Assembly: GCF_001280565.1 (NCBI RefSeq)
Contig: NZ_LGRO01000001.1
Span: 2,480,001 to 2,544,000 of the forward strand
DNA length: 64,000 nt
Direction: 5' to 3'
Origin: Sulfobacillus thermosulfidooxidans
GTDB taxonomy: Bacteria > Bacillota > Sulfobacillia > Sulfobacillales > Sulfobacillaceae
The position numbers and the translations under genes were made by a program. Shown in pieces: positions 9,550 through 61,725 of the stretch (position 1 is the stretch's first letter; every line of letters begins with the position of its first letter). Below the pieces are notes generated by a model, which saw nothing but the letters and a program-made list of their open reading frames with translations, ran no database searches and was not told where the DNA came from.

Positions 9550-10238
9550 AATCGTACCCCCTTTACTCCTAGAATGGTTTCCATGACATATTGTGTTGCT
9601 TTTCTACCTTTAACAGGACCAGTCTTAATAAGACCCGTGGGATCAGTAAACACACCGGTGAAATCTTGCACCAGATAGGAAAAATCCGCGAAAAATCCAT
9701 ATCATTACATGGTGACATGCTCTTCATGCACATGTATTCATCGACTGATTTTTGTATTCCCATGAGCACAGAGCAGTTTTTTACGTGGAAATCCCGATTT
9801 GTTCCACGAACACGTCAACCCCATGATGTCGTAATCCTGGTACTGGGGCTCGTAATCAGTGCGAAGAATGATGTCTTACACTGTTGATCAAGTGTACTCA
9901 CCGATTGCGAAATGACTATGGAATTGGAAAACTTTTACTAAGTGTAGCATAACATATCCAAAATATTCAACCAATGGCGCAAGTCCACGATGCATCCTAT
10001 TATTACAGTAGTGAAAAAAGAATAAAAAATGACACCTCCTCCTATGTGGAGATAGGTGTCATTAGCTTAAAATTAAGCGGTTAATGGTCAACACCATGAC
10101 CAATCAATTTAACGACATTGTACGTTATATAGACAACATTTGACAATATGTGGTCTGTCGCCCTCGTTGTGTAAGTATATTTTTATACCGGAACGCTGTC
10201 TATAATAGGACAATTTTTCCGAGTACAACCTTTCTGCC
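9550..10238. other. Intergenic region upstream of the EPSPS-like gene
   Basis: About 690 bases with no supportable gene; the short open frames here lack ribosome binding sites and family features. It holds the terminator hairpin at 10031-10060 and presumably the promoter for the six-gene minus-strand operon, which I could not pin down. Confidence 0.5.
10031..10060 (-). terminator. Rho-independent terminator downstream of the S9 peptidase
   Basis: GACACCT at 10031-10037 pairs with AGGTGTC at 10054-10060, with further inner CTCC/GGAG pairing. Read on the minus strand, the hairpin is followed by a T-rich run (complement of the A-rich bases 10012-10029). It lies about 180 bases past the reconstructed end of the peptidase gene. 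Confidence 0.7.
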
Positions 10239-22594: not shown

Positions 22595-22984
22595 GTGATT
22601 TTCGTAGTCGATGAACATCGCGATGAACCGATTTATGTGCAATTGCGCAATCAGGTAGTGGAGGCGATTGCCCGGAGCACACTCAAACCGGGTGATATCT
22701 TACCACCTATTCGCACGGTGGCGGAACTTCTCTCCATTAACTTACACACGGTGAATAAGGCATATCAAATCTTAGAACAAGATGGCTACATTATTCTCAC
22801 CAGACGGAGCGGAGGAGTCATTAGGCCAAAACCGCCTGCCGATTTTGACAGGGCATGGCGAGAGCGATTACGCCTCGTCCTAGCCGAAGCTCGTGCTTTT
22901 TCTGTGGACAGAGCCCAGGTCCTTCAATATTGCCGTGAAACGCTGGATGAATTATCTACTCTTCAAGAAGGGAACGGATCATGA
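22595..22984 (+). CDS. GntR-family transcriptional regulator, YtrA/YhcF type
   Basis: A 129-residue DNA-binding protein. The winged helix-turn-helix spans about residues 10-75, with PIYVQLRNQVVEAI, LPPIRTVAELLSINLHTVNKAYQ and DGYIILTRRSGG. The short helical tail lacks the large effector domain of FadR or HutC types, which fits the YtrA subfamily, usually linked to membrane-protein operons. GTG start after AGAGGTGAC. Its stop overlaps the next start by four bases (ATGA), so the two genes are co-translated. Confidence 0.88.
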   Translation: MIFVVDEHRDEPIYVQLRNQVVEAIARSTLKPGDILPPIRTVAELLSINLHTVNKAYQILEQDGYIILTRRSGGVIRPKPPADFDRAWRERLRLVLAEARAFSVDRAQVLQYCRETLDELSTLQEGNGS

Positions 22985-24075
22985 TGGGACCAAATTTTTT
23001 GGTGATCACTATTTGGCTTGCGATGATCTTGACCTATGCTATCGTGCCGTATCTGATGCCCAAAACGTTGGTTTTTGGCGTCCGCATACCGCATGAGCGG
23101 CGAGGGGATCCATATCTGAAATCTGTGAGACGGGATTATGAGATCGGGATTTTTCTGGTGGGAATCATTGCGGGGATTGTCAGTTATTATCGTAATCATT
23201 TTATGAACGAGGTCATGGTCCTGACGTCAAGTGGGCTGTTGCTACTATTCCTGATCGGAAATTACGAAATCGCCCATGCACGCATTAGTATGAGAAAACA
23301 GCATGAAGACTGGTACCAAGGGCATCTCCAGGCAAGAATGGCGTTCATTGACACAAACGATACCAATATGCTCCGCAAGACTTTTATTCGATGGTTAATC
23401 ATTAACGCGGTGTTCATTGGAATCCTTAGCCTAATCGCGGGGATTATTTATCCTCATTTGCCAAAAATGCTACCTGTTCACTGGTCTACCCAGGGCAACG
23501 TAACGGCGCGTGTGACCAAGAATTGGCTAACGGTTTTTCAACCGATTTTAGTGGGTGCTGTTATCGTGTTGGGCATAAGTCTCTTTGAAGCCTATTTGCT
23601 TACCCATCTGCGACCCGATATTGATCCGCGTGAACCTCACGACTCTTTCATCCAGTATTATGTATTTGTACGCCGCATGATTCATGCCTTGGGAATTGTA
23701 GAAATGGCGCTGATTCTCTCCTTGATGCTTACCATCTTTGGCATGTGGGGATGGCTCAAACATCCATCGCCTATGGTGTTGGCGAGTCCGGTATTAATCG
23801 CTGTGTTCGCCGTAATGGCAATCAGTTTGTTCACGGGTCAGGAAGGTAGTCGGCTGACGACACATTCTTCTTTTATTACCACCCCTTATGATCATCGTGA
23901 TGATGATGCTCAGTGGAAAGCGGGGTTATGGTATTACAATCCGGATGATCCCAAATGGCTCGTGGCTAAACGATTTGGCGTGGGATGGACACTAAATTTT
24001 GCCCATCCTATCTCTTGGCTCATCATCGGTGGACTGATCTTTTTGGTTATGCTGTCGATCTTCATAGGACATTGA
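22981..24075 (+). CDS. DUF1648/DUF5808 multi-span membrane protein
   Basis: A 364-residue integral membrane protein. An N-terminal unit has several membrane segments. The central LPKMLPVHWSTQGNVT matches DUF1648, and the C-terminal LWYYNPDDPKWLVAKRFGVGWTLNF region matches DUF5808. Such proteins pair with YtrA-type GntR regulators, as here, and are sometimes compared with SdpI-type immunity proteins. The biochemical function is unknown. A second DUF1648 protein is encoded at 37507-38394. Confidence 0.82.
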   Translation: MMGPNFLVITIWLAMILTYAIVPYLMPKTLVFGVRIPHERRGDPYLKSVRRDYEIGIFLVGIIAGIVSYYRNHFMNEVMVLTSSGLLLLFLIGNYEIAHARISMRKQHEDWYQGHLQARMAFIDTNDTNMLRKTFIRWLIINAVFIGILSLIAGIIYPHLPKMLPVHWSTQGNVTARVTKNWLTVFQPILVGAVIVLGISLFEAYLLTHLRPDIDPREPHDSFIQYYVFVRRMIHALGIVEMALILSLMLTIFGMWGWLKHPSPMVLASPVLIAVFAVMAISLFTGQEGSRLTTHSSFITTPYDHRDDDAQWKAGLWYYNPDDPKWLVAKRFGVGWTLNFAHPISWLIIGGLIFLVMLSIFIGH

Positions 24076-24646
24076 ACGCAAATGAGCATTGGATGAGCGA
24101 GTAGACTCGCGGTTATCATGGGAATGACTGAGTCGTGAACACCAGATAAAATGCATTGTTACTGTCTTAAAAGAGACCACTTCCATGATAGGAACAATCC
24201 TATGGGTTGTTCCTATCATGGCGTGAATGCGAAATGGGAAGAGAGCCTTATTTATGCCTTTTTAGGCCGCGAAAATACATCTCATCATGTAATCGTTTTG
24301 TTCTTTTTTGTTCTAACGGTAATTCTCTCTTATCAAAATGTCGGCTTGGGACTCACTTTTTTAAGAGCGGTGTGATTGCATCTAGATGTTCTAAATTATC
24401 AAGAGAAGGACATTAACGTTGTCCAGCTTTGAGCGGATCTTCAGTTACTGTGCCAATATAGGCGGCAAATCTTGTGTCTTCCCCGCGTTTTTCCTATACG
24501 TTCCTTAAGGAAATGCCATTGCGTCAGATAGTCGTTTAATATTGCTAAAAAAGATGTTAAGTGAAAATTCCGTTGTCTTATAATAAATTATAGTAAGAAA
24601 TAAGGAATTGGGCCTTTAAAATAAGAAAGCAGAAAGGCAGGCCAGT
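24076..24646. other. Intergenic region with a long perfect inverted repeat
   Basis: About 570 bases. Open frames of 60-75 codons are present but have no site or family match. The prominent feature is the inverted repeat at 24183-24221; the rest is A+T-rich and should hold the promoter of the NERD gene. Confidence 0.5.
24183..24221. repeat. Perfect 15-bp inverted repeat
   Basis: CCATGATAGGAACAA (24183-24197) and TTGTTCCTATCATGG (24207-24221) are perfect complements around a nine-base loop. No T run follows on either side, so it is not a classical terminator. It may be an operator, a processing site or a mobile-element relic. Confidence 0.75.
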
Positions 24647-25468
24647 ATGGGGATTGTATTTGCGGGAACTTTAATTTTAATTACTGTTACGATTCTGGTT
24701 CTCGCGCTGCGTCCACCAAATGCTTATATTCGTGGAAAGCAAGGCGAAATAATTGTGCAAGGGGCTCTACGGCTTTTAGATCCCCTGGAATACGATGTTT
24801 TTCATGATATTACGGTGCCTTGCACTTCGACTGCATCGGGTATTTGTCAAATTGATCATATTGTCGTGGGGTCCTCGGCAATTTTTGTGATTGAAACGAA
24901 GAATATTCAAGGGGCTTTGCACGGAAAACGCCGTGAAGTGTATTGGACTCATGTAGTTGGCATGCAGAAACGGCGGATTTATGCTCCTCACCGTCAAAAT
25001 GCGACGCATATCAAAACGTTGCGGCGGGCTTTTCCCGATTTACCTAAAGATATTTGGTTTTCCTTAATTGCCGTGCCTAATTCCCTTCAATTGTATATTG
25101 AAGAAATTTCAGGGGCGCATATCGTGCAGTTTTCTCATTTAGTGGATTTTATTACCCGATCGAATGCCAGTATTCCCCAACCACTCTCTCCCGCGCAACG
25201 CGAATATGTGATTCGCACCTTACTGCAATGGAAACGGCATCATGCTTTAAAGCATTCTTGGTTAGGGCGTCTTACCCGGCGCCGCCGCAATTTAGGCAAC
25301 AGCTTAGAGGTTGCCAGTGGCCGTTGCCCGGTTTGCGGGAGTCCTTTGCAAGTGGTTAAGGATACAAATGGATCGAAAATGGTTTGTAGTAAATCGTCTT
25401 GTACCTTTTCCACGACGGTCTTGTCCATTACCGCATTGCGCCAGCCCAAAGATCACACGAAGAACTAA
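24647..25468 (+). CDS. NERD-domain membrane-anchored protein with C-terminal zinc ribbon
   Basis: A 273-residue protein with an N-terminal membrane anchor (about residues 2-22). A NERD (nuclease-related) domain follows: GEIIVQGALRLL, then QIDHIVVGSSAIFVIETKN, which has the Asp and Glu-x-Lys of the restriction-endonuclease-like fold. The C-terminus has a topoisomerase-type zinc ribbon, CPVCGSPL ... CSKSSC. The arrangement suggests DNA processing at the membrane, but the role of this family is not settled. The ribosome binding site is weak (AAAGGCAGG). Confidence 0.85.
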   Translation: MGIVFAGTLILITVTILVLALRPPNAYIRGKQGEIIVQGALRLLDPLEYDVFHDITVPCTSTASGICQIDHIVVGSSAIFVIETKNIQGALHGKRREVYWTHVVGMQKRRIYAPHRQNATHIKTLRRAFPDLPKDIWFSLIAVPNSLQLYIEEISGAHIVQFSHLVDFITRSNASIPQPLSPAQREYVIRTLLQWKRHHALKHSWLGRLTRRRRNLGNSLEVASGRCPVCGSPLQVVKDTNGSKMVCSKSSCTFSTTVLSITALRQPKDHTKN

Positions 25469-51504: not shown

Positions 51505-54447
51505 TTAAGGAAATGTCGGACCCAAAGGGCCTAAGTCGCCTGGATGCAGGTGGAGGGTTTTTTGGGTCACGTCAATATCCATGCCTAGGAGCACTTGCAA
51601 GAGCAAAAACGGAGCCCCTGCTGCCCAAGCTTGAGGACTGCAGGCGGCGGGGTAGGGATAGGGCCCAAAGGGAGCCGGTTCGCCCGAAAACAGTTCAGGC
51701 AAGCGGCCATAAGGGAATTGACTGGCGGCTTGAAGGAGACTCCAAGAGAGCATGTGGGCTTCTGGCCATAGGCCATAATGGGAGAGCCCTTTGGCAATGA
51801 GCGCGGTATCATGAGGCCATATGCTGCCCCGGTGATAGCTGTACGGATCATAGGTGAGGGCGTCCGAGGATAGGGTGCGAATTCCCCATCCGGAATATAA
51901 AACCGGTGACATTAAAATCTTAGCGACATCCAGGCTCCGTGAATGGGGCACAATACCCGTCCACAGACATTGTCCGGCATCGGAGGTTAAAACGTCTAAC
52001 GGACGGCCACTATGGTCCAGGGCTAAAGCATAATAACTTTTTTCGTCTAACCAATAGCGTTTATGAAACTGGCGTTTGAGCTGTTTGGCCCGTTTTAGCA
52101 ATTCTTGAGCTTTGGGAGACTGGTCTGTTGATTGGTAATATTGGCTCATTAAGATCAGGGCCCGGTAGGCATATCCTTGCACCTCACTCACTGCCAAAGG
52201 AGGAATGGCATGTTCTCCGGTGCTGTACACCATTGAATCAAAGGAATCTTTCCATGATTGAATAACGAGTCCATGATCAACATGGTTCTGGAAGGAAAAT
52301 AAGCCGGTTTGGGAGTCTTGGGCTCCAAGAAGCCAATTCAGCGCTTTTTCAGCTGCCGGCATTAAGTCCGCCATCATGTGGTGATTGCCCGTTCGTTTCC
52401 ACGTTTCCATAAGCAATATTAAAAACAGCGGCGTGACATCCACCGAACCATAATAACGGGCAAAGGGCACTTGGCGACTCCGAGCCATTTCTCCCAGACG
52501 GATTTCATGAATCATTTTTCCAGGCTCTTCTTCAGTCGTGGGATCGACCTTTTTGCCTTGCCAGGCGGCTAAAGTGTATAACGTGTTTTGTGCAATGACA
52601 GGATTCCACAGTAAATATTGATAGGACGCGATGATCGCGTCGCGGCCAAAAAATGTGCCAAACCAGGGAAGTCCAGCCATAGGCACTGGACCATGGCCAA
52701 AGTCAGTCAAGAGCATGTGATAATCTTGATGGGCTTGGGAGATGACGAGATGCCAGGGATATTCATCGAAAATAAAGTGAGGATCGAGTGTTAGGGGATT
52801 CCTAACCTTCTTAAGACGGGTTTGGGGAATTTCTGGCACCGGGTTGTGCCAGGAAATTCTCAGGGTCAATTCGCCGCATGTTTCTTGAGCATCGATGCAC
52901 CATTTCCAGTCGCCGTCAAGAGCGTGAATCGGACTTTTGTCAGCACTCATGCGGAGCACGCGGGTAATGCCGTCAATGCCTTCATATTCTAAACGGTATT
53001 CTTCATTCTCAGATGCCTTGCGTTTGATGCCGCTTCGGATTTTGGGGGTACCCCGCAATTCGAAAATATCGGTAAAATCAGCATCTATGCTTAATGACAA
53101 GTTCCACGGCTCTAAAGATCCGTAATGCTGCCATTGCCAGTGATCCGTAAAATGGTCGGCATGAAGCGTGAGGCAGCGCTGAAGAACCCGGGTCATCCCA
53201 TCTTGCTGGATGACATAATGCCAGGTCAACGTATTGGCCGTGACATCAAAATGTAAGGGATCGGGTACCTCCTCTCCAATCCGCCACTGGTAGATGGATA
53301 CCATACGCGTATCGTAGCAATAGATACCGTGACGTTTGGATTCCATTTCAATACGCCCCTGGGGCGAGAAGATGGCGAAAGTCGGGCCTGCTTTAAGGAC
53401 AGGTTCTTTAAGATTGGTCCGGGGGGTTTGATAGATGGCCGGAATTCCGGTCGATCCACGAATATTGAGGTGAGGGATGACGCGCACGCTATGAACCGGC
53501 TGACCTTGAATCGAATTAATGAGCATGTTGGCCATTTGATACCCGGCCTCTTTCAGATTGATGTCCATGCTGGAAAGCGGAGAATGCATGTGAAGAGATG
53601 GGGAGAGAGGCTCCAAACTCATAATCGAGAGCTGGCGGGGCACATGAATGCCCAAATCGCCGGCACAGCGCCGGGCTTGTAGTGCCCCATGGCCACTTGT
53701 CACTAATAAAGCAGTGGGGGGAGAAATTTGGGTTAAGAGCTCATAGGTCAGATGATAGCTATCATCCTTCATTTTGTCACGAGCCAGAACATCGTGAGGA
53801 TTAAGATGCGCCTTAACCATGGCCGCCGCATATCCTTGCCGGTACCGTTCAATGTTTGGGGTCAGCTCATCCGGAATGATTAGAGTAATGCGCTGATGGC
53901 CTAAATCGATTAAATATTGTGTCGCAATCCGCGCCGCTTCTTCAAAATCCGTATCGTACGAGAGATGGGGTTCATGATGGGCACCGTAGACCACAAAAGG
54001 CAGGTGATTACGGGTCAAAATATCGCGGTAACGTTCTAGTCCCGGGTCATCAAATAAAATAAGGCCGTCGATGCGTCCCGAGCGGCTTACCTGTTCTAGA
54101 TATGAGACGATGTCGCCTATCGTGGGCGATAGAACCATGACATGGTAACCCTTTTCCTGACAAGCCGCTATCACGCCTTCCATGAGTGTGGGGAAAATGC
54201 CCTCGGGTCCATTCGGAGTGAGCGAGGCGGGCAGCAAAATCCCAATGGTTTCCGATATTCCTCGCACCAATATCCGTCCCCGGACGTTGGGAGCATAATT
54301 TAGTATCCGTGCGGCATCATGCACTTTTTGAATCGTTTCTTGGGAAAAATGCCCTTGATTATTGAGCACATAAGAGACGGTAGCGATAGAAACTCCCGCT
54401 AACTTGGCCACATCGCCAATCCGTGCCCGGCGAGAGGATTGCGACAT
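51505..54447 (-). CDS. LacI-family repressor fused to an amylo-alpha-1,6-glucosidase-like enzyme
   Basis: A 980-residue fusion. Residues about 8-50 are a LacI helix-turn-helix, IGDVAKLAGVSIATVSYVLNN; about 60-340 is the periplasmic-binding-like effector domain. From about 365, a glycogen-debranching N-terminal beta domain is followed by an (alpha/alpha)6 GDE_C-type catalytic domain. Visible signatures are GLPWFGTFFGRDAI, YYGSVDVTPLF, WKDSFDSM, YSYHRGSIWPHD and ACSPQAWAAGAPF. GGAGGG precedes the ATG at 54447. It is divergent from a sugar ABC operon and palindromes lie just upstream, so it may both bind that control region and process the imported sugar. The 3' end is frameshifted (see 51413-51504). 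Confidence 0.9.
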   Translation of the reverse strand: MSQSSRRARIGDVAKLAGVSIATVSYVLNNQGHFSQETIQKVHDAARILNYAPNVRGRILVRGISETIGILLPASLTPNGPEGIFPTLMEGVIAACQEKGYHVMVLSPTIGDIVSYLEQVSRSGRIDGLILFDDPGLERYRDILTRNHLPFVVYGAHHEPHLSYDTDFEEAARIATQYLIDLGHQRITLIIPDELTPNIERYRQGYAAAMVKAHLNPHDVLARDKMKDDSYHLTYELLTQISPPTALLVTSGHGALQARRCAGDLGIHVPRQLSIMSLEPLSPSLHMHSPLSSMDINLKEAGYQMANMLINSIQGQPVHSVRVIPHLNIRGSTGIPAIYQTPRTNLKEPVLKAGPTFAIFSPQGRIEMESKRHGIYCYDTRMVSIYQWRIGEEVPDPLHFDVTANTLTWHYVIQQDGMTRVLQRCLTLHADHFTDHWQWQHYGSLEPWNLSLSIDADFTDIFELRGTPKIRSGIKRKASENEEYRLEYEGIDGITRVLRMSADKSPIHALDGDWKWCIDAQETCGELTLRISWHNPVPEIPQTRLKKVRNPLTLDPHFIFDEYPWHLVISQAHQDYHMLLTDFGHGPVPMAGLPWFGTFFGRDAIIASYQYLLWNPVIAQNTLYTLAAWQGKKVDPTTEEEPGKMIHEIRLGEMARSRQVPFARYYGSVDVTPLFLILLMETWKRTGNHHMMADLMPAAEKALNWLLGAQDSQTGLFSFQNHVDHGLVIQSWKDSFDSMVYSTGEHAIPPLAVSEVQGYAYRALILMSQYYQSTDQSPKAQELLKRAKQLKRQFHKRYWLDEKSYYALALDHSGRPLDVLTSDAGQCLWTGIVPHSRSLDVAKILMSPVLYSGWGIRTLSSDALTYDPYSYHRGSIWPHDTALIAKGLSHYGLWPEAHMLSWSLLQAASQFPYGRLPELFSGEPAPFGPYPYPAACSPQAWAAGAPFLLLQVLLGMDIDVTQKTLHLHPGDLGPLGPTFP

Positions 54448-54471
54448 AAGATCCCTCCACAAACAGTTAAA

Positions 54472-54627: not shown

Positions 54628-55899
54628 ATGGCCTCATCCAAACACGTTCGGCGCGCGGGTCTTGGCATATTTAGCGCCTTGTTGTTAACGGGAACCCTGG
54701 CCGGATGTGGTTCATCTCAAGCCACGACCTCGAAGACGGTTAATCTCGTTTTTGCCACACAAGGACTGGGCACAGAAGCGCAAGCAACGCAACAAGCCGT
54801 GAAGGAGTTTGAAAAATTGCACCCGAATATTCATGTGCAAATTGAAACCCTCTCGGCGTCGTCGAACGATGCTTATCAGACCTTGGTGACGGATTTAACT
54901 TCGGGTTCGAGTACACCGGATGTCATTACTTCCGATGTCATATGGCCTCCAACATTTGCGGCGGCCAAATGGATTCTTCCTCTTAATCAATTTCATCCTA
55001 ATCTCAGCCACTTCTTCCCAGGCATGGTCAAAGCGGGAGAATACCAAGGAAAACTCTATGCGATTCCTTGGTTTATTAATGTGGAAGGCTTATATTACCG
55101 GACCGATCTCGTTAAGACCCCTCCGAAAACCTTTACTCAACTAGTTTCGGACGCCAAAGCGGCGATGAAAAAGAATCCTAAACTAATTGGACTGGCTTTT
55201 GAGGGGAATAAATATGAGGGAGCTGTGACAGTTTTCCAAGATGTGTCCGGCGGATTTGGCGGCGAATTTTTAAATGCCAAGGGGCAGCCGGTATTAAATT
55301 CTCCACAAAATATCCGGGCCTTGACGTGGCTGGATAATGCGATCAAAACGGGACTTTCGCCGCAAGCTGTGACAAGCTGGGAAGAAGGCAATGTCCAACA
55401 GGCGTTCTTGTCAGGCGATGCGGTATTTGCGACGAACTGGCCGTATTTATATCCTTTGGCCGAACAAAACGGATCGGCGGTTAAGAATAAAGTGGGGTTT
55501 GCTCCCCCGCCCGTTCAAGGAGGCAAGCCCACAGCATCATTAGGCGGCGATGTCTTAGTCATTAACAAAAATACGAAGTATCCCAAACAAGCCTGGGAAC
55601 TCGTGAAGTTTCTGACCTCGGCTAAAACCATGACCCAAAGGGCGTTAATTTCCGGAGATCCCCCAGCCCGTACAGATGCCTATACATCCTCGTTAATCAG
55701 CCAAGCGCCCTGGTTTAAACAAGAAGAAGCGGTGTATGCTGACGCGACCCCTCGTCCTGTCACCCCGTTATACCCCCAGATTTCGGCGAAAATTCAAGAA
55801 GCCTTGTCTGCGGTATATTCTGGTCAGGAAACGCCGAAGCAGGCACTCGACCAAGCGCAAAAGGCTGTCGAAGCTATCGTGAGTGGTCATGGCAGCTAA
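54628..55899 (+). CDS. Sugar ABC transporter substrate-binding lipoprotein
   Basis: A 423-residue extracellular solute-binding protein of family 1 (MalE-like). The signal peptide ends in a lipobox LAGC (Cys near residue 27). The mature part has VNLVFATQGLGTEAQ at the first strand and the usual WEEGNVQQAFLSGDAVFATNW region. AGGAGGA precedes the ATG. It leads an operon with two permeases. Likely ligand: malto-oligosaccharide or another alpha-glucan fragment, inferred from the neighbouring debranching-type enzyme. Confidence 0.9.
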   Translation: MASSKHVRRAGLGIFSALLLTGTLAGCGSSQATTSKTVNLVFATQGLGTEAQATQQAVKEFEKLHPNIHVQIETLSASSNDAYQTLVTDLTSGSSTPDVITSDVIWPPTFAAAKWILPLNQFHPNLSHFFPGMVKAGEYQGKLYAIPWFINVEGLYYRTDLVKTPPKTFTQLVSDAKAAMKKNPKLIGLAFEGNKYEGAVTVFQDVSGGFGGEFLNAKGQPVLNSPQNIRALTWLDNAIKTGLSPQAVTSWEEGNVQQAFLSGDAVFATNWPYLYPLAEQNGSAVKNKVGFAPPPVQGGKPTASLGGDVLVINKNTKYPKQAWELVKFLTSAKTMTQRALISGDPPARTDAYTSSLISQAPWFKQEEAVYADATPRPVTPLYPQISAKIQEALSAVYSGQETPKQALDQAQKAVEAIVSGHGS

Positions 55900-56836
55900 A
55901 GTCGCGGTAAAGCCTGAACCTCATCGTCCCAAATCGCAGGCCAGAACGTCGTATTTAGCCAAGCGACGGAGGGTCGGCTATCTCTTGGTGTTGCCCGCGG
56001 TTGTGGCATTGGCTTTGATTGCGATTTATCCTTTGCTATATAACCTGGTTCTGTCAACACGTTTTGATGTGTTGACAGAACCAGGTACCGAGCATTTTAT
56101 CGGGTTGCAAAATTATCAACAGTTATTGAGCGACCCCAATTTTTGGGGAGATTTGCTGCGAACGGGCATTTTTGTGGTGATTTCCGTGACGTTGGAATTC
56201 ATTGCGGGCATGATTTTGGCGTTGGTGGTTCACCGCAAATTCAAAGCCCGAGGGCTCGTGCGGGCCTCCATTTTAATACCGTGGGCAATACCCACAGCCG
56301 TTTCCGCCTTGTTGTGGAAAATGTTTTTTGATACCCGTTCAGGTTTTGTGGATTTTGCCTTAGGCGCGTTGCATTTGCCGGGATCGCAACTGGTCTGGTT
56401 TAATTCGCCAACGTTGGCCTGGGTTCCTATCATATTAAGTGATATGTGGAAGAATACCCCCTTTATTGCCTTGTTGCTCTTAGCTGGGTTGCAGACAATA
56501 CCTCAGGAAATCTATGAAAGTGCCAAAATTGATGGGGCTAGCAGTTGGCAGGCGTTTTGGGCTTTAACTTTGCCGCTCTTACGCCCGGCAATTTTAGTGG
56601 CACTGATCTTTCGGACATTAAGCGCCATGTTAGTCTTTGATACCGTGTTTGTGATGACCGGTGGGGGTCCTGGACAAAGTACCGAAGTCATTGCCTACTA
56701 TGATTGGTACAAATACATGGTGTCCTTGAATTTTGGCTTTGGGGCGGCGGTTGCCGTAGTGATTAGTCTTCTCGCCTTATTATTAGCGGCCTTTTACGTG
56801 CGAATCTTGCGGCAACGGGGAGGATTCATGACATGA
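55889..56836 (+). CDS. Sugar ABC transporter permease (MalF/UgpA-like)
   Basis: A 315-residue inner-membrane subunit with about six membrane segments. The EAA loop that docks the ATPase reads EIYESAKIDGASSWQAFWALTLPLL. I prefer ATG at 55889, overlapping the binding-protein stop by 11 bases; GTG at 55883 is possible. Inside the gene is an 18-bp perfect hairpin (56043-56086). Confidence 0.92.
   Translation: MAAKVAVKPEPHRPKSQARTSYLAKRRRVGYLLVLPAVVALALIAIYPLLYNLVLSTRFDVLTEPGTEHFIGLQNYQQLLSDPNFWGDLLRTGIFVVISVTLEFIAGMILALVVHRKFKARGLVRASILIPWAIPTAVSALLWKMFFDTRSGFVDFALGALHLPGSQLVWFNSPTLAWVPIILSDMWKNTPFIALLLLAGLQTIPQEIYESAKIDGASSWQAFWALTLPLLRPAILVALIFRTLSAMLVFDTVFVMTGGGPGQSTEVIAYYDWYKYMVSLNFGFGAAVAVVISLLALLLAAFYVRILRQRGGFMT
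56043..56086 (+). repeat. Perfect 18-bp hairpin within the permease coding sequence
   Basis: ACCTGGTTCTGTCAACAC (56043-56060) and its exact complement (56069-56086) flank an eight-base loop. The hairpin lies in frame about 155 bases into the gene, and the encoded residues are ordinary for the family. No T run follows. Confidence 0.85.
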
Positions 56837-57660
56837 GAACATGGTTCGGACGGGCAGGCTTTAATCTTCTTATTGTGTTTATTATTTTGTATTCCCTGTT
56901 TCCCTTTTACTGGGTATTCAAATCGTCAATGGAATCTAGCATTGCCCTTAATCAACCCACATCGAGTTTGTTACCCCAACAATGGACTTTTGAGCATTAT
57001 CGGGCCATTTTCGCGGTAGAAAACTTTCTGCGTCCCCTGCTTAATAGCATGTTTGTGGCCGGCATGACCACAATTATCTCCGTCATTTTAGGATCCATGG
57101 CGGCTTACGGATTAGCGCGCATGCCGATTAAGGGTAAGGTGCTGATTTTAGGTTTTGTGTTATTAGTGTCCTTTTTTCCGCAAATTGCCATGGTCGGCCC
57201 CTTATTTTTAGTTTTTCGGCATTTACACTGGCTGAACACCTACCAAAGTTTGATTGTGCCTTACCTGATTTTATCCTTACCTATTACCACCTGGATTTTG
57301 ACCGCGTTTTTTAGTCAAATTCCTGTTGATATTGAAGAAGCGGCTATGGTGGATGGGGCTTCGATTACTCAAACCATTCTCAAAGTCTTTGCACCCATTG
57401 CCTTGCCAGGAATTTTTACCGCCGCCATTTTGGGGTTTCTTCTATCGTGGAATGACTTTTTGTTTGCCCTGTCTTTTATCCAAAGTCCCAATATGGATAC
57501 GGTGCCCTTAGCCCTCGTCAACTTCCGCAATGCATATTACGTGCATTATGGCCAGATTTATGCCGGGGTGGTTATTGCGTCATTGCCCATTGCGCTCATT
57601 GTGCTGTTTTTGCAGCAGCGGATTGAATCGGGATTAACAGCCGGCAGTGTTAAGGGATAG
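56833..57660 (+). CDS. Sugar ABC transporter permease (MalG/UgpE-like)
   Basis: A 275-residue permease with about six membrane segments and the EAA loop DIEEAAMVDGASITQTILKVFAPIALP. Its start overlaps the previous stop by four bases. It completes the membrane channel with the MalF-like subunit. No ATPase gene follows, so a shared MsmK/MsmX-type ATPase encoded elsewhere probably energises it. Confidence 0.92.
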   Translation: MRTWFGRAGFNLLIVFIILYSLFPFYWVFKSSMESSIALNQPTSSLLPQQWTFEHYRAIFAVENFLRPLLNSMFVAGMTTIISVILGSMAAYGLARMPIKGKVLILGFVLLVSFFPQIAMVGPLFLVFRHLHWLNTYQSLIVPYLILSLPITTWILTAFFSQIPVDIEEAAMVDGASITQTILKVFAPIALPGIFTAAILGFLLSWNDFLFALSFIQSPNMDTVPLALVNFRNAYYVHYGQIYAGVVIASLPIALIVLFLQQRIESGLTAGSVKG

Positions 57661-57717: not shown

Positions 57718-59340
57718 TTAGGAAGTCATCCAACTTGTAAAAGACGAGAGAGAGGATAATGCCTCTTTCACTTCGGCTTCCAATGCGGATGGGCTCGCAA
57801 TATGATCACGCAGATAGGCTTTAATGCGGGGAATTTGAGGGCTGGCCATGCTTAAGCGGGTGATGTGAAGGCCTGCGAATAACAAAGCCCACTGGGGTTC
57901 CGCAGCGAGTTGTCCACAGACACTTAAGGGAAGATGGTAAGCTTGGGCTTGTTCACTGGCAAAGGCCAGAGCTCGGGCGAAACTGAATGTTCCAGAACTC
58001 CGATGATCAGAAGACTGTTCACGGTCTTGGGCGAGCATATATTGATAGAGATCGTTACTCCCCAAGGAGGCGAACTGAACATGGTGTGTGGCGAGTTCGG
58101 GGATGAGAAAAAGGAGAGAAGGCACTTCCAGCATGATGCCGAGGTGTAATGATGACATAGGGCGATTGGACGCATTAATCACCTCGTGTGCCATATGCTG
58201 GCAAAATTGCCATTCCTCGAGGGTGCTGATCATAGGAAACATGACGGAAACAGGCTGGGAGTCGTCTTGTGCGCGAAGCAAGGCCTGAAGTTGGGTTTTC
58301 AGTAAATCCGGATATTGGTAATAGAGTCTTACTCCCCGCCGACCTAAGGCTGGATTGGTCTCCGTGTTTACGGGGAGAAAGGCCAATGGCTTGTCGCTGC
58401 CGATGTCCACGGTGCGGAAAATGACGGGTCCTGGACTATTCTTTCGTACAAGCCGGTACAAATCCACTTGCTCGTCAAGGGATAGAAGGTGATCAGCCGC
58501 TTCGAAAAAGAATTCGGTACGCACGAGTCCGATACCGTCAGCACCAAAATCCCGGGCCTGACGGGCTTCTAACACAGAGGATATATTCGCCATGATTTCA
58601 AAAGATTGCCCTTTAATGTTGAGGGGACCCACATAACGGGGAGAAGGGCGATTGGGATTCACTTCTTCCAGAGGACCTGTGCTGGCTTCATCAAAGAGCT
58701 CGATATAACCCTCATGGGCATTTAATAAGATTTGGGACGGTAAGGAATGATGCGATAAAATTTTTACCGCGGAAGGGAGTTTAAGAACGGGAATCCCCAT
58801 ATTCTGGGCAATCAATGAGGCATGCATGAGGGGACTTCCCTCTTCAACAATGATGCCGAGAACAGGAATTTGCGCCCAGGTTATGATGTCTCGCACACTC
58901 ATCTTGTCTGTGACAACGATTGTCTCGGGTTCTATTCTTACGGTGTGATGGTTTGTGAGAGTTTGGATCCACAGTGCCGCAACGTCGCGAATGTCTTGTG
59001 CTCGTTGTTGTAAATAGGGATCAGCTATTTGGTCAAGAGATGAAGCAAATTCTTCAGCCGATTGCCTGATAGCGGTTTTGGGGTCAAGGGTGCGAGTCAA
59101 CTCCTCAACACGGGTCCACCACGTAGGGTCTTGTAACATGAGCATTTGCGCTTCGATAATGTCTTTTTCGTTGGCTTGAGACACTGTCCTTATGAGTTTT
59201 TCGAGGGTGGCAATAGCTAGGGCATGAGCTTTTCTCCAGTCTTGGCTTTGAGATTCTTGGCTCTCTGGCATGGTCGGAGACACGATCGTCCAAGGGCCCC
59301 GTGCTACACCCGACGACAGCACTTCAGCATCATAGCGCAC
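57718..59340 (-). CDS. ptsI: PTS Enzyme I (phosphoenolpyruvate-protein phosphotransferase), divergent
   Basis: A 540-residue enzyme that passes phosphate from PEP to HPr. The C-terminal PEP-binding barrel is well kept: GIGLVRTEFFF, RTVDIGSDK, NPALGRRG, LGSNDLYQY and the late Cys in SVCGQLA (about 476). The active-site His region is altered: EEGSPLMHASLIA, near residue 175, where the family usually has GGRTSHxAI; the His itself is present. The N-terminal HPr-binding part is shorter and weaker than usual. GTG start after AAGGAGG. It is divergent from HPr and not in an operon with it. Confidence 0.9.
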   Translation of the reverse strand: MRYDAEVLSSGVARGPWTIVSPTMPESQESQSQDWRKAHALAIATLEKLIRTVSQANEKDIIEAQMLMLQDPTWWTRVEELTRTLDPKTAIRQSAEEFASSLDQIADPYLQQRAQDIRDVAALWIQTLTNHHTVRIEPETIVVTDKMSVRDIITWAQIPVLGIIVEEGSPLMHASLIAQNMGIPVLKLPSAVKILSHHSLPSQILLNAHEGYIELFDEASTGPLEEVNPNRPSPRYVGPLNIKGQSFEIMANISSVLEARQARDFGADGIGLVRTEFFFEAADHLLSLDEQVDLYRLVRKNSPGPVIFRTVDIGSDKPLAFLPVNTETNPALGRRGVRLYYQYPDLLKTQLQALLRAQDDSQPVSVMFPMISTLEEWQFCQHMAHEVINASNRPMSSLHLGIMLEVPSLLFLIPELATHHVQFASLGSNDLYQYMLAQDREQSSDHRSSGTFSFARALAFASEQAQAYHLPLSVCGQLAAEPQWALLFAGLHITRLSMASPQIPRIKAYLRDHIASPSALEAEVKEALSSLSSFTSWMTS

Positions 59341-59648
59341 CGTAGATCCTCCTTGAATTTCCGTTTTGTCTGATGAAGAAAATGATATCAGTGATCATCA
59401 TGGATTGTTCGATGGCCTTAGGCAAGGTCGTATCATGTTGACGATCGACTCATTGTTGGGGTTTTTCTGAAAAGGCAATAACCCTCTTTATAATATAAAA
59501 TGTAAACAGGCCAAGCATGTGACTAATGCCGATCCATAATTCGACGGGAGGGGACGGGATTAGCGTGAGAGAGCCGAAGGAAGAAAAGTCTGATCGTCTC
59601 ACAATCTAATGGTCTCGATTGCGACCGGATTTTATTAGAGGTGCGAAT
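59341..59648. other. Divergent promoter region between Enzyme I and HPr genes
   Basis: About 305 bases. TATAAT at 59489-59494 is a good -10 box for HPr, although no convincing -35 box lies at the right distance. No catabolite-response-like palindrome was recognised. Confidence 0.4.
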
Positions 59649-59921
59649 ATGGTTCAACGACAATATACCATTATGGCCAGCGACGGACTTCATGCCAGAG
59701 TTGCAGCGCAATTGGTGAAAACCTTAGCGACCTTCCCTTTTACGGTGCAGATTTCGTGTCACGGAAAAACGGTAAATGGCAAAAGTATTCTTCACATTTT
59801 ATCACTGGGAGCCCAACATCATGACGTGGTTACGATCGATTATGAGACAGATGACTTGACTCAAGTGACGGCTTGCGAACAATCATTGTCGGAGGTAATC
59901 GAAGCGATATCAAAGTTATAA
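59649..59921 (+). CDS. ptsH: PTS phosphocarrier protein HPr
   Basis: A 90-residue HPr with the catalytic His15 in DGLHARVA and the regulatory Ser46 in NGKSILHIL, numbered from the ATG at 59649. AGAGGTG lies six bases upstream, so this ATG is preferred over the open-frame extension. Ser46 means it can be phosphorylated by HPr kinase and take part in carbon catabolite repression, as in Gram-positive bacteria. Its TAA stop lies in the direct repeat at the left end of the insertion sequence, and the coding sequence is intact. Confidence 0.93.
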   Translation: MVQRQYTIMASDGLHARVAAQLVKTLATFPFTVQISCHGKTVNGKSILHILSLGAQHHDVVTIDYETDDLTQVTACEQSLSEVIEAISKL

Positions 59922-59922: not shown

Positions 59923-61725
59923 TTACTTTCCGCACGTGGAGGGAACAAAAAAATTATTTTTTTTGGGCTGATCGCAAAGGAGATTGTGTATCGCATGGCG
60001 AAGTAATCTCTTATGAACACACCCATGCCGACACCCGTTGTTGTGGGGGCTGGACCGGTCATCCGAGCCCTCTGTGAAGAAATTGGATTCATCGAGGCCA
60101 TAAATCAGACCGTTGCGTGGGATTCGCAGCGTTGCCACCTGTCGCCCGGCGAACGGATTTTCGCGCTCGTCGTCAATTTGCTCACCGCTCGTCGACCTCT
60201 GTATCGCGTCCACGAGCAATTTCAGTTAACCGATGTGCCCTTGTTGTTTGGATCCGGCCGCACCGCGGCCGATTTTACGGATGATGCCCTCGGACGGGCT
60301 CTGGATAAAGTCGCTGCCGCCGGTGGCGCCACCGTCTTCAGTGCCGTTGCAACGCGAGCGCTCTTGCACGACCACGTGTGGACGCCCGATAGTCCGGTGT
60401 TTGTCCACTGGGATAGTACGACCCGCTCGGTCTATGGCACGTATCCGGACACCGGATCCGGGACCGGAGTGCATCCCACCTATGGCCATTCCAAGGATCA
60501 TCGTCCCGATCTGCGTCAAATTCTCCTGACGCTGTTGGGGACCCGAGAAGGCATTCCGGTGGTGGGCACGGTGCAAGACGGGAATCTGAGTGACAAAATC
60601 CTCAATGCCGAGATGATTGCGGCCTTAGACGATTACTTTTCGCCTCAGCAACTGCAACAACTGGTCTACGTGGCCGATTCCGCCCTCATCACGGGTCCTC
60701 ACTTAAAGGCGATGGCTGACCGTTCGCTCCGCTTTCTCTCGCGTTGTCCGGAAACATTTCGAGCCGCGCACGATGCGAAGACGGCCGCCTTGGCGGCCAA
60801 CGCCTGAGTTCCCCTCGGCAAAATCGGGGAGCGGGCCGATGCGGCCACCTACGCGGCCGCAGAACAGACCGGCGAAATTGAGGGCCGATCCTATCGGCTC
60901 GTGGTTTATCGCTCCGATCATCTAGCTGAGCGGAAAGCTCACACCATTGCCCGCCAGGTCGAACGGGCCCATAACCAGTTAACCCGGGCGGCGACTCGCC
61001 TCGCGGAAACCGTGTTTGCCTGTGCTCATGATGCCGAAGCGGCCGTGGCCGCTTGGCGGGCCACCGCCCAATGGCATCATGTCGAGGCGACGGTTGTCGC
61101 GGAAACGCAGGTCCCCAAACGCACGACCCGCGGGCGTCCCCGCCACGATGCCCCCGAACCGGCTACCACCACAGTATACCGGGTCCATCCCACCATTGGG
61201 GCAGTCGATGCGCAACGCGTGCAGGCGGCACAGGACCGGGCGGCGACGTTTGTCTTAATCACCAATCTGCCGGCCTCCTCCTTTGATGCCCGCCGATTGC
61301 TCGAAGAATACAAAGGCCAAACGGTCATCGAACACCGTTTTCGCTTTGTAAAAGACCCGGCCTTTGTGGATGCGCTCTATGTGCAAAAGCCGGAACGGGT
61401 GGAAGCCTTAGGTTATGTGCTCTTGCTCGCCGCGTTGGTGCTCAGTCTCATCGAACGTCGGGCCCGGCAGGCCCCGCCCCTTCCCACGCCGACTCGCGGT
61501 CTGTTGGCGCGGCCTACCGGGCAGGAGGTGTTACATCATCTGCGCGGACTGATTGTCGTGCCGCTGGATGCCCAGACCCGTCAACTCTTTGTCCCGGCGG
61601 TTCATACCCAGTCGGTGGCGGCCATTTTGGCCGCATTGGGTTTTACGGATACGATTTACACGCAGGTGCCCCCTAGACCCTCGGGATAAATTCCACGGCT
61701 TTCACCCATCACGTGCGGAAGAGGA
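59923..61725 (+). mobile_element. Insertion sequence of the IS1634/IS4 superfamily, about 1.8 kb
   Basis: The element is bounded by the GTTATAAC repeats. Its ends carry inverted repeats with a perfect core TTCCGCACGTG (59928-59938) and CACGTGCGGAA (61710-61720), with weaker matching outside the core. It is visibly richer in G+C than its neighbours, which suggests arrival from another genome. One transposase frame fills it but is broken by a stop. Confidence 0.8.
60013..61689 (+). pseudogene. DDE transposase, interrupted by an in-frame TGA
   Basis: A transposase frame of about 558 codons. The DDE residues look present: Asp in HWDSTTRSVYG (about 133), Asp in VADSALI (about 221) and Glu in IEHRFRF (about 440). 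GVHPTYGHSKDHRPDLRQ is typical of the IS1634 group. A single TGA at 60805-60807 (codon 265) splits the frame; coding continues in the same frame with VPLGKIGERAD and no other defect. Trp is the likely ancestral residue. The change seems recent, and the element is probably not self-mobile. Confidence 0.85.

What the first reader, a model, noticed from the sequence alone, without database searches (positions are those of the whole stretch)
56043..56086. Perfect 18-bp hairpin inside the permease coding sequence
An exact 18-bp inverted repeat with an eight-base loop within a coding region is very unlikely by chance. It lies early in the first permease gene, just after the binding-protein gene, where it could stall polymerase or ribosomes or protect the upstream mRNA, keeping permease levels below the binding protein.
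Basis: partly seen in the sequence, partly recalled or inferred. Interest (0 to 1): 0.62.

Follow-up and report, generated by a model that had tools for sequence, protein, structure and literature searches.

The report
Conserved mRNA hairpin inside permease gene
A long perfect RNA hairpin hidden inside the coding sequence of a sugar-transporter permease is kept by evolution across six Sulfobacillus species, most likely to shield the upstream binding-protein message from decay so that more binding protein than permease is made; this is the kind of operon tuning known from E. coli, not a new kind of system.

Summary
In detail: 56043-56086 is an exact 18-bp inverted repeat with an 8-nt loop (20 bp with two inner pairs), inside a MalF-type permease gene, 144 nt after the stop of the overlapping binding-protein gene. 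It is the strongest fold in its operon and occurs once in the genome. It is not an insertion: orthologs without the hairpin encode the same residues.

It looks selected. In 6 of 8 congeneric species the stem persists despite up to about 27% gene divergence. Stem codons have the fewest synonymous changes of any equal placement in the gene. Two adjacent pairs changed on both sides, with amino-acid replacements. A relative with identical amino acids but other codons lacks it. Orthologs without it carry a different strong hairpin just past the binding-protein stop; across 24 such junctions the strongest fold lies there in 16 (5.6 expected; control 10/27, 7.1 expected).

Best explanation: a 3' barrier protecting binding-protein mRNA after decay of the permease part, as for malE and for the coding-embedded structures of E. 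coli differential-decay operons. No U-tract follows, so it is not an intrinsic terminator. No RNA data exist here, so the mechanism is inferred. New member of a known kind.

The parts
56043..56060 (+). 5' arm of the hairpin, codons (N)LVLST(R) of the permease
   Evidence: for conservation
56061..56068 (+). loop (GTTTTGAT; the two outer bases on each side pair as G-U and U-A)
   Evidence: the codons over the loop vary freely at synonymous sites
56069..56086 (+). 3' arm of the hairpin, codons VLTEPG of the permease
54628..55899 (+). sugar substrate-binding lipoprotein (SBP_bac_1; nearest solved relative a trehalose/maltose-binding protein, 1eu8), the putative protected upstream gene
55889..56836 (+). 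MalF/UgpA-type permease carrying the hairpin; start overlaps the SBP stop by 11 nt
56833..57660 (+). MalG-type permease, last gene of the operon

Best explanation
The hairpin is an mRNA element embedded in protein-coding sequence that sets the ratio between binding protein and permease. The SBP-permease-permease operon is transcribed as one message. After an endonuclease cuts the permease part, 3'-to-5' exonucleases degrade the RNA back until they meet the 20-bp stem about 150 nt past the SBP stop, leaving a stable SBP message. The SBP and permease genes overlap, so there is no intergenic space for such a stem and it is written into the permease codons. Shown here: the stem, its conservation, its compensatory changes, the synonymous constraint, the recurrence of other stems at the same boundary, and the presence of the needed nuclease genes. 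Inferred: co-transcription, blocking of exonucleases, and excess SBP message.
For: Stem kept in 6 of 8 congeners, z -5.1 to -7.5 against synonymous-codon shuffles and the lowest window of the permease gene in each. Two adjacent pairs changed on both sides (A-U to G-C, A-U to U-G), involving T-to-S and L-to-A replacements. Stem codons have the lowest synonymous divergence of 300 placements (0.217 against a gene mean of 0.469), while the loop is high (0.689) and species without the stem show no constraint. G007 has the identical peptide but no stem. The 8 orthologs outside the hairpin clade all have their strongest window within about 210 nt of the SBP stop, at differing positions. Over 24 SBP-permease junctions outside the clade it is 16 against 5.6 expected, p 8e-6; control permease-permease junctions 10/27 against 7.1. 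Other SBP operons with a gap carry an intergenic stem there (L016, L025, L027). The internal wobble pairs are U-G on the mRNA strand. RNase E/G, PNPase, RNase R and RNase III genes are present. Precedent: in E. coli 17 of 26 protective stems lie in the downstream coding sequence, 107 +/- 56 nt in, without a U-tract, with wobble conservation, and SBP genes are the stabilised ones (PMC5927463).
Against: No RNA-seq, 3'-end or half-life data. The compensatory evidence rests on two adjacent pairs, probably from one branch. Under codon-preserving shuffles only 5 of the 8 non-clade orthologs have their lowest window in the junction zone, and the orthologs are not independent. Translating ribosomes would open the stem, so it can act only on RNA that is not being translated there.
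Confidence: 0.6

Rival explanations
1. The stem is an RNase III (or other double-strand) processing site: cleavage inside it separates a stable SBP message from a short-lived permease message.
For: A 20-bp nearly uninterrupted stem is about the size RNase III needs (general knowledge); an RNase III gene is present. The conservation pattern would be the same.
Against: 20 bp is at the lower limit for RNase III (general knowledge); several relatives have an internal mismatch.
Confidence: 0.15
2. The stem slows ribosomes or lowers translation of the permease early in the gene, reducing permease synthesis directly.
For: It sits at codons 52-66 of the permease, just after the first hydrophobic stretch; stable coding stems can lower translation (suggested in PMC5927463).
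Against: It does not cover the start codon or ribosome-binding site. In relatives and sister operons the equivalent stems are at other places, including between genes, which fits a gene-boundary role better than a translated-codon role.
Confidence: 0.12
3. Partial transcription termination or pausing at the stem lowers permease transcription, like the internal terminators after SBP genes in clostridia.
For: Stem-loops after SBP genes act this way in Ruminiclostridium (PMC9045158).
Against: The bases after the stem are ACCGAGCATTTTATC, no U-tract, and the terminator scan did not report it.
Confidence: 0.07
4. No RNA function: a pre-existing quasi-palindrome fixed by the conserved peptide was made perfect by a template-switch or hairpin-correction mutation and is drifting.
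For: The peptide already gives about 11.5 of 18 pairs on average; such correction events are known (general knowledge).
Against: Retention over up to about 27% gene divergence with unusually low synonymous change in the stem but not in the loop; both-sided changes that keep pairing, one as U-G rather than a perfect copy; recurrence of other stems at the same boundary.
Confidence: 0.06

Closest known systems
Protective RNA structures of differentially decaying operons in E. coli, many inside the downstream coding sequence (Dar and Sorek 2018, PMC5927463)
   Same: Stable stem without U-tract, soon after the stop of a gene needed in excess (SBP), embedded about 100-160 nt into the next gene, with wobble-position conservation
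   Different: Not shown by RNA ends or half-lives here; different phylum; stem is perfect; relatives carry a stem at shifting positions
malE-malF intergenic protective stem of E. coli
   Same: Same operon logic (SBP first, MalF-type permease next) and same expected effect
   Different: The malE-malF structure is intergenic; here the genes overlap and the single-copy stem is in the permease codons
[quoted passage not shown]
   Same: Stem-loop after an SBP gene expected to lower permease expression relative to SBP
   Different: Those are intergenic with a (reduced) U-tract; here coding and no U-tract
[quoted passage not shown]
   Same: Stem-loop downstream of a gene tunes operon stoichiometry through transcript stability
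   Different: SRPS stems are described in 3' untranslated regions

Membership tests
Coding-embedded protective structure of a differentially decaying operon | Stable hairpin at the boundary after the gene needed in excess, inside the downstream coding sequence (about 107 +/- 56 nt in) | tested here: met
   154 nt into the permease ORF, 144 nt after the SBP stop; reference figures
Coding-embedded protective structure of a differentially decaying operon | No U-tract after the stem | tested here: met
Coding-embedded protective structure of a differentially decaying operon | Structure and wobble positions conserved in relatives | tested here: met
   (6 of 8 congeners)
Coding-embedded protective structure of a differentially decaying operon | 3'-5' exonucleases and an RNase E-type endonuclease present | tested here: met
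   PNPase, RNase R, RNase E/G genes found; RNase Y not found above its cut-off
Coding-embedded protective structure of a differentially decaying operon | RNA 3' ends just downstream of the stem and longer half-life of the upstream segment | not testable with these tools
   no transcript data
Internal intrinsic terminator after SBP gene | GC-rich stem followed by U-rich tract | tested here: not met
Internal intrinsic terminator after SBP gene | Located in the intergenic region | tested here: not met
   genes overlap by 11 nt; stem inside permease ORF
REP or other dispersed palindromic element | Multiple genomic copies, present as an insertion relative to orthologs | tested here: not met
   single copy; no length difference from orthologs without the stem

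The most novel reading that the evidence does not exclude
Sulfobacillus may routinely write boundary hairpins about 150 nt into downstream coding sequences and keep them strictly enough that RNA pairing goes along with amino-acid replacements (T-to-S with L-to-A here). A second case in the same genome, a 19-bp stem about 154 nt into a 126-aa membrane ORF that follows a 48-aa ORF, keeps a 16-bp stem in its relative with several both-sided changes.
Probability: 0.3. Interest if true: 0.6.

Novelty: new member of a known kind. Interest (0 to 1): 0.45.

Why it matters
It is a clear natural case of two codes in one stretch: identical amino acids with (G000, G006) and without (G007) a 20-bp mRNA stem, in a bacterium far from E. 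coli. It makes the coding-embedded differential-decay idea testable outside proteobacteria, and suggests that SBP/permease stoichiometry is tuned by stems that move across the gene boundary during evolution.

Tried and rejected
Insertion of a mobile or repeated palindrome: rejected, single copy and no length change against orthologs. Intrinsic terminator: rejected, no U-tract. Known RNA family: none in Rfam at this site. Translational bypass or frameshift: not supported, because the stem codons encode residues conserved in orthologs that lack the stem. Pure consequence of the protein: rejected by codon redraws and by G007. The first DNA alignment included two loci in the wrong orientation (L006, L009); corrected from then on.

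Full report
OBSERVATION. As RNA it forms 20 pairs with a 4-nt loop; the 84-nt context has z -8.2 against dinucleotide shuffles. The ORF is a MalF/UgpA-type ABC permease (PF00528), preceded by a sugar-binding lipoprotein (PF01547; nearest solved relative a trehalose/maltose-binding protein) and followed by a MalG-type permease. The permease ATG (55889) lies inside the last codons of the binding-protein gene (stop 55897-55899), so there is no intergenic space.

CHANCE. The naive improbability overstates the case, because the encoded peptide NLVLSTRFDVLTEPG already tends to pair with itself: codons redrawn from the gene's own usage pair 11.5 of 18 positions on average. Still, only 5 of 20,000 redraws reach the observed pairing and 0 of 3,000 reach its energy. 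It is the only perfect stem of 11 bp or more inside a long ORF of the window; the other long ones (18630, 19877, 20589, 24183, 46335) are between ORFs. In 1.26 Mb of the genome, 1.05 Mb of it in ORFs, one other coding stem of 17 bp or more was found. The arm occurs nowhere else in the 3.83-Mb genome, apart from one half-site with 3 mismatches.

CONSERVATION. Orthologs exist in all 7 other genomes of the genus held (82-98% protein identity) and in six other members of the family. Named relatives found in GTDB contigs include S. benefaciens, S. thermotolerans and S. harzensis. There is no length change at the site. Six species (G000, G006, G001, G002, G003, G004) keep the stem at -29 to -35 kcal/mol; G007, G005 and the more distant orthologs do not. 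The six group together on the gene tree once it is rooted on the distant orthologs, so the stem most simply arose once. G007 has the identical 16 residues with different codons and no stem, so the stem can be made or lost by synonymous choice alone.

SELECTION. (i) Among the six species the stem codons have the lowest synonymous divergence of 300 placements of the same mask, tied with the placement one codon earlier (0.217; gene mean 0.469), while the loop codons are at 0.689; in four related species without the stem the same codons rank 178 of 292. For comparisons between the two subclades alone the stem ranks 9 of 289. Between G000 and G001-G004 the gene is 73-74% identical, the stem codons 83%. 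(ii) Two adjacent pairs differ on both sides between the two subclades: A-U against G-C and A-U against U-G. The second arm differs by Leu against Ala, the first by one synonymous change and Thr against Ser. Cells paired, cells changed on both sides and the covariation score exceed nearly all shuffles (3 of 500 reach them), but the number of both-sided pairs and of pair types does not. This is real but modest evidence: two pairs, probably one branch. (iii) The internal non-Watson-Crick pairs are mostly U-G on the mRNA strand; the A-C mismatch occurs only at the outermost pair, and one internal U-C mismatch occurs in three species. This fits an RNA read from the + strand better than a DNA cruciform.

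POSITIONAL TURNOVER. The 8 orthologs outside the hairpin clade all carry their strongest fold, by dinucleotide z, within about 210 nt of the SBP stop, at varying places: for example G007 a perfect 12-bp stem at +106 to +133, G012 at +53 to +108 and G022 at +9 to +68. With codon-preserving shuffles 5 of the 8 do. Over 24 SBP-permease junctions from orthologs, paralogs and other families of the class, 16 have the strongest window there against 5.6 expected (p 8e-6); the permease-permease junction of the same kinds of operon gives 10 of 27 against 7.1 (p 0.15). Upstream genes were called SBP by length here (about 420-500 aa), not by domain search. Three paralogous operons with a gap of about 60-77 nt between upstream gene and permease carry the stem in the gap (L016, L025, L027). 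The junctions are not phylogenetically independent, so the p-value is a guide only.

MECHANISM. The best fit is the model of Dar and Sorek (PMC5927463): in E. coli operons whose first gene is stabilised, 26 of 34 have 3' ends just after a stable hairpin lacking a U-tract; 17 of those 26 hairpins lie within the downstream coding sequence at 107 +/- 56 nt, with wobble conservation; and substrate-binding subunits are the stabilised partners in ABC operons. Here the stem begins 154 nt into the permease and has no U-tract. The genome has RNase E/G, PNPase and RNase R, so an E. coli-like scheme is possible; RNase III and RNase J are also present, and no RNase Y passed the cut-off. Clostridial work reports intergenic terminators after SBP genes, and no drop when the genes are 24 bp apart (PMC9045158). 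Embedding the stem in the permease would be a way round that lack of space. What is not shown: co-transcription, RNA ends, half-lives, protein ratio.

GENERALITY. In sampled stretches of the genome the other long coding stem, 19 bp at C1:3091606-3091647, also begins about 154 nt into a membrane ORF, here 126 aa and preceded within 10 nt by a 48-aa hydrophobic ORF. Its G006 ortholog (72% identity) keeps a 16-bp perfect stem with several both-sided changes. This suggests, without proving, that the device is used beyond this operon.

VERDICT. Real, selected and well placed; the mechanism is inferred from comparative evidence and precedent. New member of a known kind. A search of the paper library for Sulfobacillus with 'hairpin' and 'coding sequence' listed four papers, none with Sulfobacillus or hairpins in its title; this does not exclude earlier notice in papers not held.

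Noticed in passing
L106 11606-11647 (own genome C1:3091606-3091647, minus strand): A 19-bp perfect hairpin inside a 126-aa membrane ORF of unknown function, about 154 nt from its start; the relative G006 (L109) keeps a 16-bp stem with both-sided changes.
   Followed up: partly
window 10046-10110, minus strand: Fluoride riboswitch (RF01734), the only Rfam match in the window.
   Followed up: no
window 51505-54462, minus strand: A 985-aa gene that joins a LacI-family regulator to a glycogen-debranching/glycoside-hydrolase-like region (GDE_N_bis, MGH1-like), divergent from the SBP gene; looks like an unusual regulator-enzyme fusion.
   Followed up: no
window 57718-59340 minus and 59619-59921 plus: A PTS enzyme I-like protein (below the NCBIfam cut-off) next to an HPr-like 100-aa ORF (by eye), beside a sugar ABC operon.
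   Followed up: no
L018 around 1454-1479; L025 around 1405-1460 (own genome): Two other transporter operons of the same genome with strong stems at or just after the stop of the gene upstream of the permease.
   Followed up: partly
window 24183-24221: A 15-bp perfect stem between ORFs 22981-24075 and 24647-25468, with no obvious U-tract.
   Followed up: no
window 60013-61689: Two adjacent ORFs that look like one interrupted transposase (by eye only).
   Followed up: no
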